DNA of 31,797 nt from a virus: IMG/VR virus record IMGVR_UViG_3300027983_000071, positions 1 through 31,797 of that record; one strand, given 5' to 3'. The notes under the pieces were generated by a model. The model was given only the letters and a program-made list of their open reading frames with translations. It was not told the origin of the DNA and did no database searches. The translations under genes and the position numbers were made by a program. Shown here piece after piece: positions 3,201-23,685 of this stretch. Numbering within the stretch: the first letter of the stretch is position 1; each line of letters starts with the position of its first letter.

Positions 3201-5284
3201 GGAGACTCTATAATACTATAATTAACAACTACACAATCATCTATAGGTTGGTACCCATTTGTTATACTATTGTAAGTTAATTGTGTAGTATAAAAATCTG
3301 TGGTACCTGTAGGTATCCCATTAAATATACCATAATTATAATTAGTGAAATAGTTTTTAGTTATAGTATTTGCGGTAATCTTAACTGTGGGCTCCGAATT
3401 AAAGTTTGGGATGTAACACCTACTAAAGTAATTTAAATACTCGCTACCACCATCATACTCACCAACGTGAGGATTATTCCCATATAGTATTGTCGGTGAT
3501 CCTGACCCATAAGTTTCTCTATACCATCCACCACCTTTTTGGAAGTACATATCTGTTGTACCGTCTTCAACAAGTTCACCAGTTTCAGTGTCGATAAAAT
3601 CGGTTACCACTAATTGACCATCTATAGGTGGTAAAGGGTACCCATTTTCATCGTAAGGTATATTACTTAGAACATTTTCATTAACTTCACCTGTATAGAT
3701 ATATAATAATTTCTTAATTCCGTCCATATCTAATGGTTTATCCACCATTACAAGATATTCATTAAAATTAACTAAAGCTTCTGGAGCACCAATAAATCTA
3801 AATAAAAATTCTACTGCTTTTCTCGTTCCCTTACTTTTCCATAACCAACCTATATTAAGTATTAATCTTCTGTATAACTCAATATCTATTTGTTCTTGAG
3901 TGTAATTAACTGAAGTACCACTAAATTGTCCGGACCCATTACTAGGTAATAATAACTTATTAAATGTCGTACTTGTTACGAATGTAATAGGGTCCAAACC
4001 TAACATGTGAGATAAATCTTTCACTAAAGAATCTGGAACATTATCTTTTTTATTATAAGTTACTACATGTGCAAATTTAATACCATTAATATATTTTTTA
4101 ACTTCATCAAACTCAACACCATATATTCTAAGTAATTTAGTCGCCTTTTCACCGTTCAATGTTAAGTCATCACCATCACCTCTAGGGACAGTATCAAAAC
4201 TATTTATTGCTTCAGTAGTATATTTTCTTATAATAATATCAGTTTTAGTTTGATCTAAATTAATTCCAATATTATTAATTTTATCCAAATATGTTAAGTA
4301 AAAACTATCAAAGAAATTTAAATTATACCCATCTTCAAGTATTGGGAATAATAATGTTTCCGAACTAGTTAACATTACACCATCATCTGTAGCATTTGTA
4401 GAAATGATTATTGATTTATAAGGTGGGTTTGTCTCCCTAGTTAAGATATTAGTTTGAAAGTTATTAAGTGAACTAAAAAAACCTTCAATTTCAGTTTCAT
4501 TAGGTTTAATGAAATATGGTATAGAAGCATCCACATTTGTAAATAAAAACGATAGTGTCGGAATATATATTCCAGTTAATTCAGGAAAGGGGTTTCCATC
4601 AACAACTAACACTAAATCTGAATTAGTTGTTTGAGATGCTGGTGTTATATTTTTTATGTTTTTACTTATACCATTATGTTCTATAACATATGAACTATAA
4701 TTTACAGTAAAATTTCTAAGTTTGTTTGAAGTGTCTACACTAGGTGTATATTGGAAATCTAAAGTATATTTAATCCCATATGGGTTAACGAAAAACCTAC
4801 TATTAACAGTAAATGTGGACTCATCTCTGGAGATGTCATAAACATAATTAGTGATATTGTTACCAGTTACACTACCAACCTTATCATCTACGTAGATTGC
4901 TGCTGGCCATTTATCTTGTGCTTGTAGTAACGATGATCTAACCAACTCCTCAGCAGAACCATACCAAATATAACTCAGAGGATTTGTTAAATCTAAGTTC
5001 AATTTAGTTTTAATATTTTTTTGTATTGTTTGTTCTGTAGAATTCGTAACTATGTCATCCAAACAATATAGTTTTGACTTTGTACCTTGTTTAAATAGTA
5101 TGTTTGGTTTAGGGTCTAAATTAACATCTATCGAAAAGTTTCCGTTGGTAAAAAGCGTAGTACCACCTTCACTAGTAAGTTGTAAACCTACTAAATCAGG
5201 ACTAAAATTTCTGTATTCAATGTTGTCATTGAAAAATATCCTTTTTGCGTATCCCGCAATTTTTATTTTATTATTTTCAGCCAT
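1..5284 (-). CDS. Giant tail/adsorption structural protein, 3' end beyond window
   Basis: An open frame begins at ATG 5284 and reads without a stop to the left edge, about 1761 codons, so the C-terminus is missing. I checked the frame at both ends and in the middle. It starts 5 bases after the preceding gene's stop and lies last in the visible tail operon. Residues about 478-512 contain GTRKAVEFLFRFIGAPEAL, a pattern resembling the conserved segment of P2 gpI-like baseplate proteins (weak resemblance). From about residue 800 to the edge, vicinal-cysteine modules recur (SCCTTLGY, ECCAWYGY, DCCNAIGG, DCCTKSVLGF, DCCPTPGNIGF). Residues about 1380-1665 are charged and heptad-like, suggesting coiled coil. 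The last visible part is a glycine/proline-rich repeat. Size, repeats and position suggest a baseplate-attached fibre or host-contact protein; this is inference. The family was not recognised. Confidence 0.85.
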   Translation of the reverse strand, partial: MAENNKIKIAGYAKRIFFNDNIEYRNFSPDLVGLQLTSEGGTTLFTNGNFSIDVNLDPKPNILFKQGTKSKLYCLDDIVTNSTEQTIQKNIKTKLNLDLTNPLSYIWYGSAEELVRSSLLQAQDKWPAAIYVDDKVGSVTGNNITNYVYDISRDESTFTVNSRFFVNPYGIKYTLDFQYTPSVDTSNKLRNFTVNYSSYVIEHNGISKNIKNITPASQTTNSDLVLVVDGNPFPELTGIYIPTLSFLFTNVDASIPYFIKPNETEIEGFFSSLNNFQTNILTRETNPPYKSIIISTNATDDGVMLTSSETLLFPILEDGYNLNFFDSFYLTYLDKINNIGINLDQTKTDIIIRKYTTEAINSFDTVPRGDGDDLTLNGEKATKLLRIYGVEFDEVKKYINGIKFAHVVTYNKKDNVPDSLVKDLSHMLGLDPITFVTSTTFNKLLLPSNGSGQFSGTSVNYTQEQIDIELYRRLILNIGWLWKSKGTRKAVEFLFRFIGAPEALVNFNEYLVMVDKPLDMDGIKKLLYIYTGEVNENVLSNIPYDENGYPLPPIDGQLVVTDFIDTETGELVEDGTTDMYFQKGGGWYRETYGSGSPTILYGNNPHVGEYDGGSEYLNYFSRCYIPNFNSEPTVKITANTITKNYFTNYNYGIFNGIPTGTTDFYTTQLTYNSITNGYQPIDDCVVVNYSIIESPLQNDGKTTFQQQYAVANQEYLDFLLKIEVDSYLQYSPEWQVIKNNYELAQNNCLLEVSTENCDSNNTLEICISELDIDIKPFNCDTLSAVTDCSPFLYYVDDTGTKVTFDEFGSCCTTLGYTHVPYINESGIKSEYCSKLAPCVGTPLSQLENGVVVFQMANNTIPTNIYTLFNQKCVQSINDVSQTESSYFSGIPNINSFQEYIDQINENQILTGLFYELFTFVDCPESDSLSTTIISSPECCAWYGYDYQVINSSDDKQYIVCVENGGQESPELVINSLNPLFPIVNISANTIYNEYQNPAGDIVSYFSTNMFKDCFDESVILLGPDTNSNSLFITPNALFSSTTLNIPSEWKVNTIDQYGRISFTPKDPFYDFILDWNSNGQLATLYKEVADFYNYTFGQFTFNCDGILIPYYNSGTFIITPPDVITAAVDSTRIGCDDINNVSVTFASEKWQGFRLPELDDCSCTIDFSFDYMLKYTAENLMECVKKDPCNPSIFSDVSLNNLNCRNFITFTSNEEDPTDPLSLINNFNSETSSSEEYVIWQNNNCIIEPSTDCCNAIGGNVVSLNEWASNNQTWVNFIYDQYQSIVDGEIIGGVPVQLIDYITNLNTTFNSLTTTLNGCYSIPTSLFGSCDINYSEYIQTQNICSLDVPLECGLWTNTLSNYRLLIGAIENIISEFNKNCGRPTITNLDGTISDGDKTLVNHKNEIATKELSIILKENTLKIELKNELSGLLVKRAGLDVKINERADKIKEKESDNQVISKSTTEINTNLDCTIYDVKIKELDNFNYNNFCTLQVYGTISSTKLNKNDEFNNCVSVQKLKNENEKIIYNDLLKNCQTSNGLQGKLVKAKFENDGNLITTLEKEVFITQTRINLLTQRGSEFIEPDSSLQKSVLQSNNIVNTINRTAELLNTTTENITNSEGNLSLSDSQKIQLNIIFVKNESKISSLTSEMGELESEKNENISKSAIIGTIGGTKRCPTPGNIGFGQSTNPIGQITFNGIPLGIDCCTKSVLGFNVEWVGNGCYPKGFISPNGDVPPNGDVDCCPTPGNIGFGQSANPIGQ
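63..96 (-). repeat. Short tandem 18-bp repeat inside the giant gene
   Basis: The 16-base unit acatcaccattaggtg occurs at 63-78 and 81-96, a period of 18 bases or six codons. It encodes an SPNGDVPPNGDV-type run, a flexible proline/glycine linker between cysteine modules of the giant protein. Confidence 0.8.
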
Positions 5285-5289
5285 TTATA

Positions 5290-6192
5290 TTAAAAATCTG
5301 TTACGTCATCAAAGTCTTTAGTTGGGTCAATTGTGAATTTTTGTTCTCTAACTTCATATAGTGGTTTACCTGTAAACTGATCCTTAACCTCATATAAGTT
5401 ATATTGTTTATAAATTTGATTACCAAAGTTATATATAGTATAAATACCGTCTTCTAAAGATTTTGATTGATTTGAGTAAAGTGCGTATGCTAATGTTTCA
5501 TCATCATATTCAACCATTTCTATTTCTAACATAATAGGGTTAAAAAATGTATTAGTTATAATCACACCTTGCTGTGGGTTTCCGATAAATGGAACTGCGT
5601 TAGGTTTTACTGATGGTGCTGAAGAAGGTGTTAACGTACAAAAAACTGTTGTAGAGTTATCATTAAACGTATAAGCTTGTGATGCATTATCATTACCTTG
5701 ATTTTGTGTAATAGGTAATGCCCTATTATTTGATGTAATAATTCTAAATAAATTTTGTATTTTGTTTTGTCCTGTACCCGTATTCTCTTTTAAATATTCT
5801 ATTCTATACCCTACTAAGTTTCCATTTTCAAATCTACTTTGTAACTCTGTAGGTATCTGATTTATATCGAAAGCTAAACCTTTTACATCTTGATTATCGA
5901 TTAAAACCCCACAATCTTGTATAGTGGTTCTTATTTGTTTTGGTCTTATAATAATACTGTAAAATCCTTTACTACCAAAAACCGCTGTTGGTAATTTTAA
6001 TGTATACAATCCACCCAATATTTCATTAACATCATTTGGACTATTCGTTGGTATTAGAACTTCTGATGGGTCTAAATTCAACAAATCTACACTACTCACC
6101 AGTTCTCTGGAAGGTGTATAACTATATAATATTTCCACATCATCAACAGATACATCTGCTGGTCTTATTGTTCCGTAATTTCCTGTTGCCAT
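5290..6192 (-). CDS. Unrecognised structural protein, tail module (300 aa)
   Basis: A 300-residue soluble protein starting at ATG 6192, preceded by an A-rich leader without a Shine-Dalgarno motif. It has no signal peptide or membrane segment. The composition is rich in Asn, Thr, Ile and Val, with few cysteines (two), as expected for a beta-rich virion component. The N-terminus begins MATGNYGTIRP and the C-terminus is acidic (DPTKDFDDVTDF). It lies between two other tail-module genes with gaps of 5 and 11 bases, so it is very probably co-transcribed and part of the baseplate or tail. No family was recognised; the structural role is inferred from position only. Confidence 0.8.
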   Translation of the reverse strand: MATGNYGTIRPADVSVDDVEILYSYTPSRELVSSVDLLNLDPSEVLIPTNSPNDVNEILGGLYTLKLPTAVFGSKGFYSIIIRPKQIRTTIQDCGVLIDNQDVKGLAFDINQIPTELQSRFENGNLVGYRIEYLKENTGTGQNKIQNLFRIITSNNRALPITQNQGNDNASQAYTFNDNSTTVFCTLTPSSAPSVKPNAVPFIGNPQQGVIITNTFFNPIMLEIEMVEYDDETLAYALYSNQSKSLEDGIYTIYNFGNQIYKQYNLYEVKDQFTGKPLYEVREQKFTIDPTKDFDDVTDF

Positions 6193-18690: not shown

Positions 18691-18725
18691 ATAAATATTG
18701 TTAATAATAAAATGTGATAAAAAGT

Positions 18726-18756
18726 TTGGTAGTTTAAAACATTTGCCGTATATTAG
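18726..18756 (+). promoter_or_regulatory. Bacteroidota-type promoter for the rhomboid gene
   Basis: TTG at 18726-18728, a 20-base spacer, then TATATTAG at 18749-18756. This matches the Bacteroidota consensus TTG-N19-21-TAnnTTTG at all but one defined position. The ATG of the rhomboid gene lies 19 bases after the box, leaving a short A-rich leader (ATAAAATTAAAAATT). It rules out the upstream in-frame ATG at 18698 as the start when this promoter is used. Confidence 0.65.
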
Positions 18757-18775
18757 TGTAATAAAATTAAAAATT

Positions 18776-19510
18776 ATGAAAAAGTTAATCTGTTCATTAC
18801 CAAAGGGTGTTAAATTAGTTATAACAATTAACCTTATAATTTACATAATTACCGTAATAATATTTAACCTAACAGAATATTCATTAAAGGATTTTTTAGG
18901 TACTTACCCAACATATTCAGAACATTTTAATACTGTTCAAGTATTAACATCAATGTTTGTTCATCAAAACTATCCATCACATTTTATTTTCAATATGATA
19001 ACGATTTTAATTTTTGCCCCTTTTGTTGAAAGGATTATTGGGTTTAATAAATTTATTCTAACCTATATTTTTTGTGGTTTGTGTGGTTTCCTTTTAGTTA
19101 ATTTCTCATATTATAAAAATAAGTCTACCATAGAAAAAGAAATAACAAAATTAGGGTTAAAAGTTAGTGATATAAAAATGGATGGTGATAGGGTATCTCA
19201 TGACTATATTTTATCTTTAAATGATAATAAACAAAAAAATGTTATTCGGAATTATGAATACGTTACCTCAAAAACTTATGGTTCTTCAACCGCCGCTTTT
19301 GGGTTTATTATATTGTATCTACTATTAACCCCCCTAACATTTAAAAAGATATTTTATATTGTTTTAGGTGTTTATTTTATATTAGATAATATTAATAGTG
19401 TATTTAATAACCAATCCATATTGAATGGAAGTACCTATACCCATTTAGGTGGGGTAGTAGGTGGGATAATAATATATTGCCATATAAAATTAAAAAAGGT
19501 CATCAATTAA
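18776..19510 (+). CDS. Rhomboid-family intramembrane serine protease (244 aa)
   Basis: The only plus-strand gene. I chose ATG 18776; an in-frame ATG at 18698 lies upstream of a good promoter. Rhomboid motifs appear in order: a first helix at about 13-31, SMFVHQNYPSHFIFN with H69 and N73 of the second helix, VERIIG at 84-89, the serine motif GSSTAAFG at 169-176 with candidate catalytic S171 (usually GxSG), and THLGGVVGG with catalytic H223. A soluble insert of about 55 residues (about 113-168) separates helices 3 and 4. Rhomboids cleave membrane helices within the bilayer. One is unusual on a phage; capture from a host is likely. Substrates could be phage membrane proteins encoded next door or host surface proteins (inference). 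All core residues are present, so it is probably active. Confidence 0.88.
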   Translation: MKKLICSLPKGVKLVITINLIIYIITVIIFNLTEYSLKDFLGTYPTYSEHFNTVQVLTSMFVHQNYPSHFIFNMITILIFAPFVERIIGFNKFILTYIFCGLCGFLLVNFSYYKNKSTIEKEITKLGLKVSDIKMDGDRVSHDYILSLNDNKQKNVIRNYEYVTSKTYGSSTAAFGFIILYLLLTPLTFKKIFYIVLGVYFILDNINSVFNNQSILNGSTYTHLGGVVGGIIIYCHIKLKKVIN

Positions 19511-20228: not shown

Positions 20229-20906
20229 TTAATTAATTTCACAAGAACCCCCTGAACACGCTAATTCACCACTTAATGTTGTGTTATCATCTGATTCCAC
20301 AATTTGGGATAAGTCAATGTTATTTAAATGTTTCACCATTTCGTTATACACTTCTTCCGTAATATCTTCAAAAGGTGCTTGAGTATATGTCCCACCATTA
20401 TATGGTAATACAGATAAACCATTATAATGTTCTTTGTTAGTCCACATCCATTCACCAGATAAATCCCAATCTTCATCTTTTAAAGATATAGTTGCTGAAA
20501 CGTTATGTGTATTGGAACCATTTCTATGTCCACTCTTTACCCATTCCGTTGCTACCTTCTTAACTCTTTCCAAAAGGTCGAAAGGTGATTCAGTTCTTAA
20601 TATAGAACCTTTTGGTGATTTTTGTGGGATAGTGATAATTGCTGTATCATGAGCCCTAAAGTAATCATCCTCTAACAACTCAGGGTGATGAACAATTAAA
20701 TGTTTATATATTGATTCATTTTTCCCCACTCTAATTCTTCTTATGTAGTAGTCATTGTGCCACGCATGTATCCCTGAAGATGTACCTAATGTTAAAGATG
20801 TAGTATTATGTGACACAGTACCATTACCCATCTGATACACAGGGTTATTTTCAACTTCAATGTCTACAGTAAACGATTGTGTTAATTCTTTTTTCTTTAT
20901 TTTCAT
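20229..20906 (-). CDS. nrdJ: Class II ribonucleotide reductase, C-terminal fragment fused to a C-intein (225 aa)
   Basis: Residues 1-34 are the C-terminal half of a split intein: basic start MKIKKKEL, block F FTVDIEVENNPVYQM and block G NGTVSHN, then Thr+1. Residues 35-225 continue the reductase exactly where the upstream gene stops: TTSLTLGTSSGIHAWHNDYY and IRRIRVGKNESI are typical of the adenosylcobalamin-dependent RTPR family. The C-terminus carries C217-x4-C222 (ACSGGSCEIN), the swinging redox pair of this family with the same spacing as C731/C736 of the Lactobacillus leichmannii enzyme. The gene lies 43 bases after its partner and in another frame, so a working enzyme requires protein trans-splicing. 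The 191 extein residues cannot form an active site alone. Confidence 0.93.
   Translation of the reverse strand: MKIKKKELTQSFTVDIEVENNPVYQMGNGTVSHNTTSLTLGTSSGIHAWHNDYYIRRIRVGKNESIYKHLIVHHPELLEDDYFRAHDTAIITIPQKSPKGSILRTESPFDLLERVKKVATEWVKSGHRNGSNTHNVSATISLKDEDWDLSGEWMWTNKEHYNGLSVLPYNGGTYTQAPFEDITEEVYNEMVKHLNNIDLSQIVESDDNTTLSGELACSGGSCEIN
20805..20906 (-). other. C-intein half (34 aa) of the split intein
   Basis: Covers residues 1-34 of the C-terminal reductase gene. It ends in the canonical His-Asn pair and is followed by Thr as the +1 nucleophile. The first ten residues contain five lysines, complementary to the acidic end of the N-half. The 34-residue length is typical of natural C-inteins. 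Confidence 0.9.
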
Positions 20907-20949: not shown

Positions 20950-23685
20950 CTATACCATCTGATTTAATAAAATATTTTCTTCACAATATAACCATTCATC
21001 ATCTTCCGTTATATCAATAGCTTGTTTCCAATTACCATCAGACATCATAAATTTATGATGCGGTGTACATTCAATGATACTATCATCTTCCATTGTGAAT
21101 TTCACACTTTCCTCAAACCCATTCACGAATAACTTAGTTATTAAATTCTCATTACCATTTTCATCAAAAACTTTTATATCGGTTTTAACATCGTACCATT
21201 CCCTATACACATCTAAATGATTATCTAAATTAACACCATTTATCTTAAAAATATCAAATAAACTAATATTTCCATTATTAGTCCTAATAACCGTAGATGG
21301 TATCTGACAACCCGCAGGTTTTACAGTTGTACACCTAGCCGATTTATTAATATCTATAAGTTTAGCGACTCTACTATTTTCTCTCTTTACCACATCTGCT
21401 GATTTTTCTAAATCATAACCTAATACAACTCCACTTCCGATTCCCGTCATAGATACACCGATTAGAGCGTCTTTCTCTGTTGTTTCTTGCCAGATCTCTC
21501 TTAAGTAATGAAACCCTGTGTAACCAGCTTGTAACGTCCCTATGAAGGCTGCAGCTTTAACTCTTTCATTCAAATCTTCTTGTGATTCAATATTCGAAAC
21601 ATTAACTTCACATAGGTTACAGAATTGAAATGGTCTTAGTGCGATTTCACAACAATTTCCAGTAACTACTTTTGATAGTTGGAAACAATGTGTTTCATCT
21701 TGCACTGAAATATCCCAAACATCCTCATAAATATCTGTTTCTTCTACAGATATAACTTCAACCTGATTATTATCCTGTGTATTATTAAATTTGTAGTTAT
21801 CTAGTTCATCTTGTTTGTATTGTACTGACAATTTAAAAATATTTATAAATTGTTTTATTGATTGATTCTCGTTAATTCTTAAATCATATCTGTCAAATAT
21901 CTTATCATTTAACGTTGACGTACTGTGTCTAATGGTTGTTTTAATACCGTAGAACCCTAATAATTCAGACACATCACTAAGTAACGACCTGTGCTTGGAG
22001 GTTAATATTACCCTTTTTTTACTTTTTGATATATGACCATCTGATGAGAATAAACCATCAATAATACCCTTTCTATATTCTTCAGAACCATTCACCCACA
22101 CAGCCTTAGGTAACCCAACATTTTTATCGACAATACCAAATTGTTTTATATAATTGTCGACTTGTATGTTATTTATTGACACTTCTTTGGTTTTTGTTTC
22201 AATTAGAACTTGTGTCATAGTCTCTTCAAAGTCTTCAAAGGTTGGTTTTAACCTACGTCTAAAAGAACCATTAAAAGATGGTACATTTTCTTGGATTGTA
22301 CTTATTAGTAGTTCTGATATATTGGATTCATCATCCTTATCACTTACAATCATACCGTACTCCGAATGTTCCTTTCTATTAGATACCCAACCATCACCTA
22401 TAATCCAACCAGATAAAAACCCATCATTATACGTACCTAAATCACCGTCAAACATTTTTGTTTCTCTCAGGAATGGTAATTTACTACCAACTTTAATAGA
22501 TGGTGTATTAACTTTAGTATACTGTACTCCGTCCCACACAGGCCATTCATGTTCTTTTGTCGAAAAGTATTCAGTCTTATCTTTCAATGTTAACTTATAT
22601 AATTTTTGGTTTTTTCCAGATAACCAACATTTAGCGTTACTAATTTCACCATTTAAGTTTTTAACTTCAAATTCTTTACCATCAAGTTCTTCAATCGGGT
22701 ATACTCCGTTTGTGGTGATAACCTTAGTACCTTTTCTCAATGATGGATTCGTACCCCAGGACTTATCATTAGATAAATAAATTCCTGGTTCACCCGCTCC
22801 TGACAATTCAATTCTCTTCCATAACCCCATAAAAAATTCTTTAGTGATTTTATGTCTAATAAGAACTGCTGAATTATTAGCTCTACCTCTTTGTGGGTTA
22901 TTTTCCCACCAGTCACCAGATTTACAAGAAATCATTTCATCGTCATCAGCACTAAATAATGATATTAAGGCTGCTCTACGAATACCACCAGCTAATACTG
23001 CGTCTGCAATATAACATATAATATCATGAGTTTCTAATGTTGTTAATTTTTCACCATCAGTTTTATTTTCTAATACACCAGTAATTTTAATGATACACTC
23101 TTTCAATGGTTGTGGTCCTGGCGCTTTACCACCAGAAGTAACTAACCTAGCACCTTTTGCTCTAATGTCGGAAAAATCAAATTCAATTTTAGAACTTCTT
23201 TTTTCTCCGATGTAAGACTTCATAAGTACTTTTATTGAGTCTGACCAACCTTCGATTGAGTCTCCGATTAAAAACCTTCTCTTTCTTTTATTGTGTGGTT
23301 TGTTTACCGGTAGTAATTTATCTACATTATGTTTTTGTACTGAATATCCTACACCTGTACCACCAAGTAGTAAAAACATTGTCTCTGAGAACGCATCTAC
23401 ATCATCAATAGGTAAGAACGCACAGTTATACACTCTGTTCGGAGAGATATCAATGGGTTTACCCGCAAATTGCATTGACCTCATCGATGGTAACACTTTT
23501 TTATCATATACAAACTGATACTTTTCTTCTATCTCGTCTTTTAATTCAGGATACTTCCTAATGTGCATATTCATATTCCTTGTAACCAATTCATCCCAAG
23601 TTTCTCTCCTATTTAATTCTGGAATATACTTTGCGTATTTCATATAAACCGTTATATCTGATAATATTTTGTTTGAAATATCCAT
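20950..23685 (-). CDS. nrdJ: Class II ribonucleotide reductase, N-terminal part with one full intein and an N-intein (911 aa)
   Basis: Makes deoxyribonucleotides with adenosylcobalamin as radical source. Residues 1-314 are the first extein: RRETWDELVTRNMNMHIRKY, VLPSMRSMQFAG, YNCAFLPIDD with active-site C88, and LLLGGTGVGYSVQ, all typical of monomeric RTPR enzymes. Residues 315-677 are a complete intein. Residues 678-792 are the second extein, with NP-CCE joining N313-P314 to catalytic C678, and C689 eleven residues later (the spacing of C408/C419 in L. leichmannii). It ends TTVKPAG. Residues 793-911 are an N-intein followed by TAG. After splicing and joining to the 225-aa partner the enzyme would have about 620 residues (314+115+191). 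It starts at ATG 23685 after a 107-base leader with A-rich sequence and no Shine-Dalgarno motif. Confidence 0.94.
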   Translation of the reverse strand: MDISNKILSDITVYMKYAKYIPELNRRETWDELVTRNMNMHIRKYPELKDEIEEKYQFVYDKKVLPSMRSMQFAGKPIDISPNRVYNCAFLPIDDVDAFSETMFLLLGGTGVGYSVQKHNVDKLLPVNKPHNKRKRRFLIGDSIEGWSDSIKVLMKSYIGEKRSSKIEFDFSDIRAKGARLVTSGGKAPGPQPLKECIIKITGVLENKTDGEKLTTLETHDIICYIADAVLAGGIRRAALISLFSADDDEMISCKSGDWWENNPQRGRANNSAVLIRHKITKEFFMGLWKRIELSGAGEPGIYLSNDKSWGTNPSLRKGTKVITTNGVYPIEELDGKEFEVKNLNGEISNAKCWLSGKNQKLYKLTLKDKTEYFSTKEHEWPVWDGVQYTKVNTPSIKVGSKLPFLRETKMFDGDLGTYNDGFLSGWIIGDGWVSNRKEHSEYGMIVSDKDDESNISELLISTIQENVPSFNGSFRRRLKPTFEDFEETMTQVLIETKTKEVSINNIQVDNYIKQFGIVDKNVGLPKAVWVNGSEEYRKGIIDGLFSSDGHISKSKKRVILTSKHRSLLSDVSELLGFYGIKTTIRHSTSTLNDKIFDRYDLRINENQSIKQFINIFKLSVQYKQDELDNYKFNNTQDNNQVEVISVEETDIYEDVWDISVQDETHCFQLSKVVTGNCCEIALRPFQFCNLCEVNVSNIESQEDLNERVKAAAFIGTLQAGYTGFHYLREIWQETTEKDALIGVSMTGIGSGVVLGYDLEKSADVVKRENSRVAKLIDINKSARCTTVKPAGCQIPSTVIRTNNGNISLFDIFKINGVNLDNHLDVYREWYDVKTDIKVFDENGNENLITKLFVNGFEESVKFTMEDDSIIECTPHHKFMMSDGNWKQAIDITEDDEWLYCEENILLNQMV
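20953..21309 (-). other. N-intein half (119 aa) of the split intein
   Basis: Starts at Cys793 of the reductase, after KPAG. Block A is CQIPSTVIRTNNGNISLFDI; block B is DDSIIECTPHHKFMM with the T-x-x-H residues at 874 and 877. It ends ITEDDEWLYCEENILLNQMV, strongly acidic. The split falls between blocks B and F, where a homing endonuclease sits in full-length inteins. No endonuclease remains. Confidence 0.9.
21655..22743 (-). other. Contiguous intein with LAGLIDADG-type endonuclease (363 aa)
   Basis: Residues 315-677 of the reductase. It begins with Ser (SLRKGTKVITTNGVYPIEEL, block A) instead of the usual Cys. Block B is TEYFSTKEHEWPVW with T376 and H379. Two endonuclease motifs are seen: FLSGWIIGDGWVS at about 423-435 and GIIDGLFSSDGHIS at about 540-553, both with the acidic residue kept, so cleavage activity is plausible. 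Block F is EDVWDISVQDETHCFQL and block G SKVVTGN, where the penultimate His is replaced by Gly. The +1 residue is the reductase thiyl-radical Cys678. Confidence 0.9.

What the first reader, a model, noticed from the sequence alone, without database searches (positions are those of the whole stretch)
21655..22743. Ser1 intein placed exactly before the radical cysteine, with non-canonical penultimate Gly
The contiguous intein splits NP from CCE. In the RTPR family this Cys (C408 in L. leichmannii) carries the thiyl radical, so the splicing +1 nucleophile and the catalytic residue are the same atom. The intein starts with Ser, not Cys, and the penultimate His is Gly (VVTGN). Both changes usually slow splicing, which could delay reductase activity. 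Two LAGLIDADG-like motifs with intact acids suggest an active homing endonuclease.
Basis: partly seen in the sequence, partly recalled or inferred. Interest (0 to 1): 0.7.

Follow-up and report, generated by a model that had tools for sequence, protein, structure and literature searches.

The report
Phage reductase intein before radical cysteine
A phage gene for making DNA building blocks carries a self-splicing protein insert (an intein) placed exactly before the amino acid the enzyme uses for catalysis; it belongs to a widespread, conserved phage family at an already known insertion site, and its odd end residues are a fixed family trait rather than damage.

Summary
Window 22743..21655 (- strand) is a 363-residue intein, SLRKGT...VVTGN, inserted NP|CCE in a phage class II ribonucleotide reductase (nrdJ). 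Empty relatives read GTNPCCEIALRP, and the +1 Cys aligns with C408 of L. leichmannii RTPR. Splicing motifs and both LAGLIDADG acids are intact; the model (pLDDT 91.7) matches whole inteins (best PI-PfuI, Z 30).

Ser1, T-G-N and +1 Cys are invariant in every relative with that end in view (35 loci, down to about 36% identity): an ancestral trait, not decay. Insertion before the radical Cys with penultimate Gly is not new: the annotated Bacillus phage SPbeta bnrdE intein (SNL|C...TGN|C) and Thermus phage G20c (NP|C...SGN|C) show both. In the one tested phage intein with native Gly, Gly-to-His slowed splicing, so 'Gly slows and delays the reductase' is unsupported.

New member of a known kind.

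The parts
21655..22743 (-). contiguous intein, 363 aa, S1...VVTGN; inserted NP|CCE before the radical cysteine of NrdJ
   Evidence: empty-site alleles
22541..22743 (-). N-terminal splicing region: block A (Ser1) and block B (T62, H65, W67)
   Evidence: alignment, coordinates
21811..22443 (-). LAGLIDADG endonuclease domain (approximate limits, residues about 101-311); acids D117 (22395-22393) and D235 (22041-22039)
   Evidence: Pfam PF14528; I-DmoI-like matches; coordinates
21655..21720 (-). C-terminal splicing region: block F (V342-W343-D344, H352) and block G (T361-G362-N363)
   Evidence: alignment, coordinates
22744..23685 (-). N-extein of NrdJ, residues 1-314 (ends GTNP)
   Evidence: TIGR02505
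21310..21654 (-). middle extein of NrdJ, 115 aa; begins with radical Cys315, contains Cys326 (C419 equivalent), ends KPAG
20950..21309 (-). N-half of a split intein (CQIPST..., 119 aa plus stop) at KPAG|TTS
   Evidence: TIGR01445
20805..20906 (-). C-half of the split intein (MKIKKK...TVSHN, 34 aa), with its own start codon
   Evidence: TIGR01443 just below cut-off
20229..20804 (-). C-extein of NrdJ (191 aa plus stop) ending ACSGGSCEIN, with the C-terminal cysteine pair

Best explanation
The stretch is a mobile, cis-splicing class 1 intein with a LAGLIDADG homing endonuclease, lodged at the radical-cysteine codon of a phage class II ribonucleotide reductase. Ser1 makes an oxyester with Pro-1, Cys+1 (the future radical cysteine) takes over the N-extein, Asn363 cyclises with help from block F His352 in place of a penultimate His, and an S-to-N shift restores NPCCE. 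The endonuclease cuts intein-free nrdJ alleles across this codon, which RNR catalysis keeps almost unchanged. A second, split intein must trans-splice before the enzyme is whole. Shown here: boundary, homology, conservation, empty and filled alleles, predicted fold. Inferred: the chemistry, splicing activity, endonuclease activity.
For: Empty and filled alleles; radical Cys mapping; Ser1, H and W of block B, DVWD, block F His and TGN|C conserved in a 25-member alignment and junctions in 35 loci; dN/dS about 0.05-0.23 for the splicing part and 0.09-0.27 for the endonuclease part where dS could be estimated; AlphaFold model pLDDT 91.7 matching whole inteins, PI-PfuI Z 30, TliVMA Z 26; patchy presence on the host tree, 7 changes, at least 3 forced by well supported branches; intein more alike than extein in distant hosts (L091 45% vs 35%, L080 47% vs 42%).
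Against: Pro at -1 is described as incompatible with the first step for well-studied inteins (PMC13123727), and here it is invariant, so the first step may differ from the textbook. dS is near saturation, so dN/dS values are rough. Intein and extein distances are correlated (Mantel r 0.63), so much inheritance is vertical. No activity was measured.
Confidence: 0.85

Rival explanations
1. The intein is slowed by Ser1 and the penultimate Gly and acts as a timer that delays reductase activity.
For: Ser1 and Gly depart from the commonest residues; the penultimate residue has been proposed to tune splicing in phages (PMC5050341).
Against: The traits are invariant family-wide; the tested phage intein with native Gly splices fast and is slowed by Gly-to-His; a Ser1 split intein has been reported as ultra-fast after engineering (PMC11923092, title and abstract). 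Many related phages have no insert at this site or another one, so no regulatory need is evident.
Confidence: 0.06
2. The intein splices by a non-canonical first step because of Pro-1: direct attack by Cys+1 (class 2-like), or a path related to class 3 inteins, with Ser1 kept for another reason.
For: Pro-1 invariant; [quoted passage not shown] a WCT intein with Cys1 and the same TGN|C end occupies another site of the same gene in relatives.
Against: Block F position 4 is Asp, not Cys, in all 25, so the class 3 nucleophile is missing; Ser1 is invariant; gp41-1, a class 1 intein, also has Thr at that position (PMC7664689).
Confidence: 0.1
3. A decaying intein that no longer splices, leaving a dead reductase.
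For: Non-canonical residues at both junctions.
Against: Purifying selection on splicing and endonuclease parts; no stops in any of the 37 copies examined; exteins keep the catalytic cysteines.
Confidence: 0.03

Closest known systems
Bacillus phage SPbeta bnrdE intein (NC_001884, annotated intein; Lazarevic et al. 1998)
   Same: phage RNR intein directly before the Cys that aligns with residue 382 of B. subtilis NrdE (the radical Cys, from general knowledge), ending IVTGN|C; related in sequence (24% over 370 aa, E 9e-16)
   Different: Cys1, Leu at -1, class Ib reductase
Thermus phage G20c NrdJ intein (KX987127; called a likely intein in PMC6459318)
   Same: same reductase class, same NP|C site, penultimate Gly (QSGN|C)
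   Different: Cys1, Cys at F:4, Phe at B:12; more distant sequence
Nodularia phage kac65v151 'intein-containing RnR' (MK605242)
   Same: same NP|C site, Trp at B:12
   Different: Cys1 and canonical penultimate His
Podoviridae sp. ctwe8250 NrdJ (MW202615; intein not annotated)
   Same: member of the same Ser1/TGN family at the same site, 36% identity
   Different: different phage type; endonuclease part diverged
PI-PfuI intein endonuclease (1dq3; from the Pyrococcus furiosus RNR, general knowledge)
   Same: closest solved structure, whole-length fold match Z 30
   Different: 18% identity; archaeal host; insertion site not compared here
NrdJ-1 split intein (8ubs; native exteins NPC/SEI, PMC13123727)
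   Same: same reductase region
   Different: inserted one residue later, after the NPC Cys; split; Ser+1

Membership tests
class 1 intein | nucleophile at residue 1 (Cys, Ser or Thr) | tested here: met
   Ser1 in the window and in all 35 loci with that end in view
class 1 intein | block B T and H, block F Asp, C-terminal Asn, +1 Cys/Ser/Thr | tested here: met
   T62, H65, D344, N363, Cys+1
class 1 intein | penultimate His (usual, not obligatory, so no bar to membership) | tested here: not met
   Gly362; Gly, Lys and Ser also occur in mycobacteriophage class 1 inteins (PMC5050341)
class 1 intein | linear ester at Ser1 as first step | not testable with these tools
   needs a splicing assay with S1A; Pro-1 makes this worth testing
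class 3 intein (WCT) | Trp at B:12 | tested here: met
   W67, invariant in 25 of 25
class 3 intein (WCT) | Cys at F:4 (obligate nucleophile) | tested here: not met
   Asp344, invariant in 25 of 25
class 3 intein (WCT) | Thr at G:5 | tested here: met
   T361, invariant in 25 of 25
LAGLIDADG homing endonuclease | two LAGLIDADG motifs each with a catalytic acid | tested here: met
   D117 and D235; Pfam PF14528 above cut-off; I-DmoI fold match Z 17
LAGLIDADG homing endonuclease | cuts the intein-free allele | not testable with these tools
   intein-free alleles exist, cleavage not assayed
monomeric class II RNR (RTPR, NrdJ) | similarity to RTPR, and the catalytic cysteines | tested here: met
   TIGR02505 E 2.1e-54, below its cut-off for this interrupted and split gene; aligns to 1l1l with C408 and C419, C-terminal Cys pair

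The most novel reading that the evidence does not exclude
The Ser1/Trp B:12/Asp F:4/Thr G:5/Gly-Asn family splices across a Pro-Ser junction that studied inteins handle badly, using an altered first step, and is a natural mosaic between class 1 and class 3 inteins, one substitution from the full WCT motif; a full WCT intein with Cys1 and the same TGN|C end sits at another site in the same gene of relatives.
Probability: 0.12. Interest if true: 0.6.

Novelty: new member of a known kind. Interest (0 to 1): 0.33.

Why it matters
It shows one intein lineage holding the most constrained codon of ribonucleotide reductase across phage NrdJ types, where the splicing nucleophile and the catalytic radical residue are one atom. 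The invariant Pro-1/Ser1 junction offers a ready test of how inteins splice after proline, which could also extend intein tools. The neighbouring sites (NP|C, NPC|C, YN|C, KPAG|T) make these phage nrdJ genes a good natural system for intein competition.

Tried and rejected
Different boundary or sequencing error: rejected by empty alleles and more than 30 relatives. Class 3 membership: rejected, F:4 is Asp in all members. Pseudo-intein: rejected by selection and absence of stops. Rfam found nothing in the window. The papers on SPbeta (PMC19153) and on fractured genes (PMC2677866) are not held. I recalled that the Mth RIR1 intein has Pro-1 and Cys+1; the paper search did not confirm it, so it is not used as evidence. 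The query held some residues that I had filled in from memory (one was wrong); one search repeats it with the actual SPbeta sequence and is the one relied on.

Full report
What was checked. The window is a 31.8 kb virus record with a T4-like set of genes on the minus strand: DnaB/gp41-like helicase, exonuclease, UvsX-like recombinase, baseplate wedge proteins. nrdJ lies in two ORFs, 23685-20950 and 20906-20229.

Boundary and radical cysteine. Five related loci without the insert read GTNPCCEIALRP. The spliced sequence finds L. leichmannii RTPR 1l1l (E 2.5e-41); in the printed alignment the Cys after NP falls on residue 408 and the next catalytic Cys on 419. C408 as thiyl-radical cysteine is established knowledge; that all RNRs use an active-site thiyl radical is also stated in PMC8463856.

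The odd residues are a family trait. Three scans of IMG/VR and one of genome contigs gave relatives of the intein from 100% down to about 36% identity. In all 35 loci with the relevant end in view (some are near copies, and one is the window's own or a near-identical record) the junctions are NP|S and TGN|C. In a 25-member alignment Ser1, H65, W67, D344, H352, T361, G362, N363, Cys+1 and the -1 Pro are invariant, and T62 nearly so. dN is far below dS in splicing and endonuclease parts, with dS near saturation. So Ser1 and Gly are neither errors nor decay.

Does Gly slow splicing? The best direct evidence points the other way: the Bethlehem RDF phage intein, natively Gly, was fully spliced at time zero, whereas G316H needed more than 5 h for about half (PMC5050341). 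The same paper reports that penultimate His is poorly conserved in mycobacteriophage class 1 inteins and that other inteins respond differently to restoring His. A block F His can take over, and that His is invariant here. I therefore reject the delay as an inference from sequence; the rate is unknown.

(1) The -1 residue is Pro, fixed by the RNR motif NPC. For studied inteins Pro-1 is described as incompatible because it disrupts the first acyl shift (PMC13123727). This is chemically the strangest thing at the junction. (2) W67 (B:12) and T361 (G:5) are two of the three class 3 WCT residues (positions defined in PMC5050341); F:4 is Asp, so this is not class 3. (3) A second intein in the same gene: a split intein at KPAG|TTS, N-half 21309-20950, C-half 20906-20805 (TIGR01445). 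Relatives have the same split intein (L016, L021, L027) or no insert there (L018, L019). (4) L016, whose N-extein is 88% identical, carries a different intein one codon later (NPC|CEI), with an HNH-like stretch by eye.

Known precedents. Bacillus phage SPbeta bnrdE, annotated as intein-bearing, reads FSNL|CVTGE...IVTGN|CSEV; its +1 Cys aligns with residue 382 of B. subtilis NrdE (counted from the alignment), the radical Cys from general knowledge. It is related to the window intein (E 9e-16). Thermus phage G20c reads NP|CLTG...QSGN|CAE and Nodularia phage NP|CFTG...IAHN|CGE. Position before the radical Cys and penultimate Gly are thus both known in phage RNR inteins. The Ser1/Pro-1 family itself I did not find described in the papers I could read; that is not proof of novelty.

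Fold and mobility. The AlphaFold model (pLDDT 91.7, pTM 0.90) matches complete inteins with LAGLIDADG endonucleases: PI-PfuI Z 30.0 over 326 residues, TliVMA Z 26.4 (Foldseek). On an extein tree of 31 rows the filled/empty state changes 7 times, at least 3 of them forced by well supported branches. Intein and extein distances correlate (Mantel r 0.63), yet two distant hosts have inteins more alike than their exteins. This fits a mobile intein with long vertical stretches and some transfers.

Mechanism and limits. Best reading: class 1 splicing, Ser1 oxyester, transfer to Cys+1, Asn363 cyclisation assisted by H352, S-to-N shift; plus homing into empty alleles. Homology, boundary, conservation and predicted fold are shown; chemistry and activities are inferred. 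Verdict: a sound observation, ordinary in kind, with an interesting Pro-1 junction.

Noticed in passing
window 21309-20805: Second intein in the same nrdJ gene: a split intein at KPAG|TTS (N-half 119 aa, C-half 34 aa, 43 bases between the ORFs). Mature NrdJ would need cis-splicing and trans-splicing.
   Followed up: partly
L007 7192-8217: In L007 the two halves of the same split intein are separated by a free-standing ORF with a weak Vsr match (Pfam E 0.00057, below cut-off), like the 'fractured gene' arrangement.
   Followed up: partly
L007 3762-4685, L011 3762-4700, also L014: Further intein inserted YN|C, before the Cys of YNCAF (spliced Cys88, probably the C119 equivalent), with Cys1, full WCT triplet (HRW, VWC, T) and TGN|C end: a mixed class 1/class 3 signature. 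L007 nrdJ thus holds three inteins.
   Followed up: partly
L016 about 4446-5378: Different intein one codon further on (NPC|CFVGD...FVHN|CEI), with an HNH-like stretch (HIHHIDGNGLNDLPENLESINAKEHNRNH), in the closest relative of the window's nrdJ.
   Followed up: partly
L085: In this family member both LAGLIDADG acids are Asn (GNGW, SSNG): endonuclease probably inactive while the splicing residues are kept. Other intein-like inserts lie in the same gene.
   Followed up: no
window 18698-19510, + strand: Plus-strand gene among minus-strand phage genes, encoding a rhomboid-family membrane protein (Pfam PF01694, E 3.7e-13).
   Followed up: no
L093 (Thermus phage TSP4): The record's nrdJ is broken into two ORFs within an NP|C intein (NPCLAGDT... 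and ...CHSGN|CAE), by a stop in the record; the record is marked UNVERIFIED.
   Followed up: no
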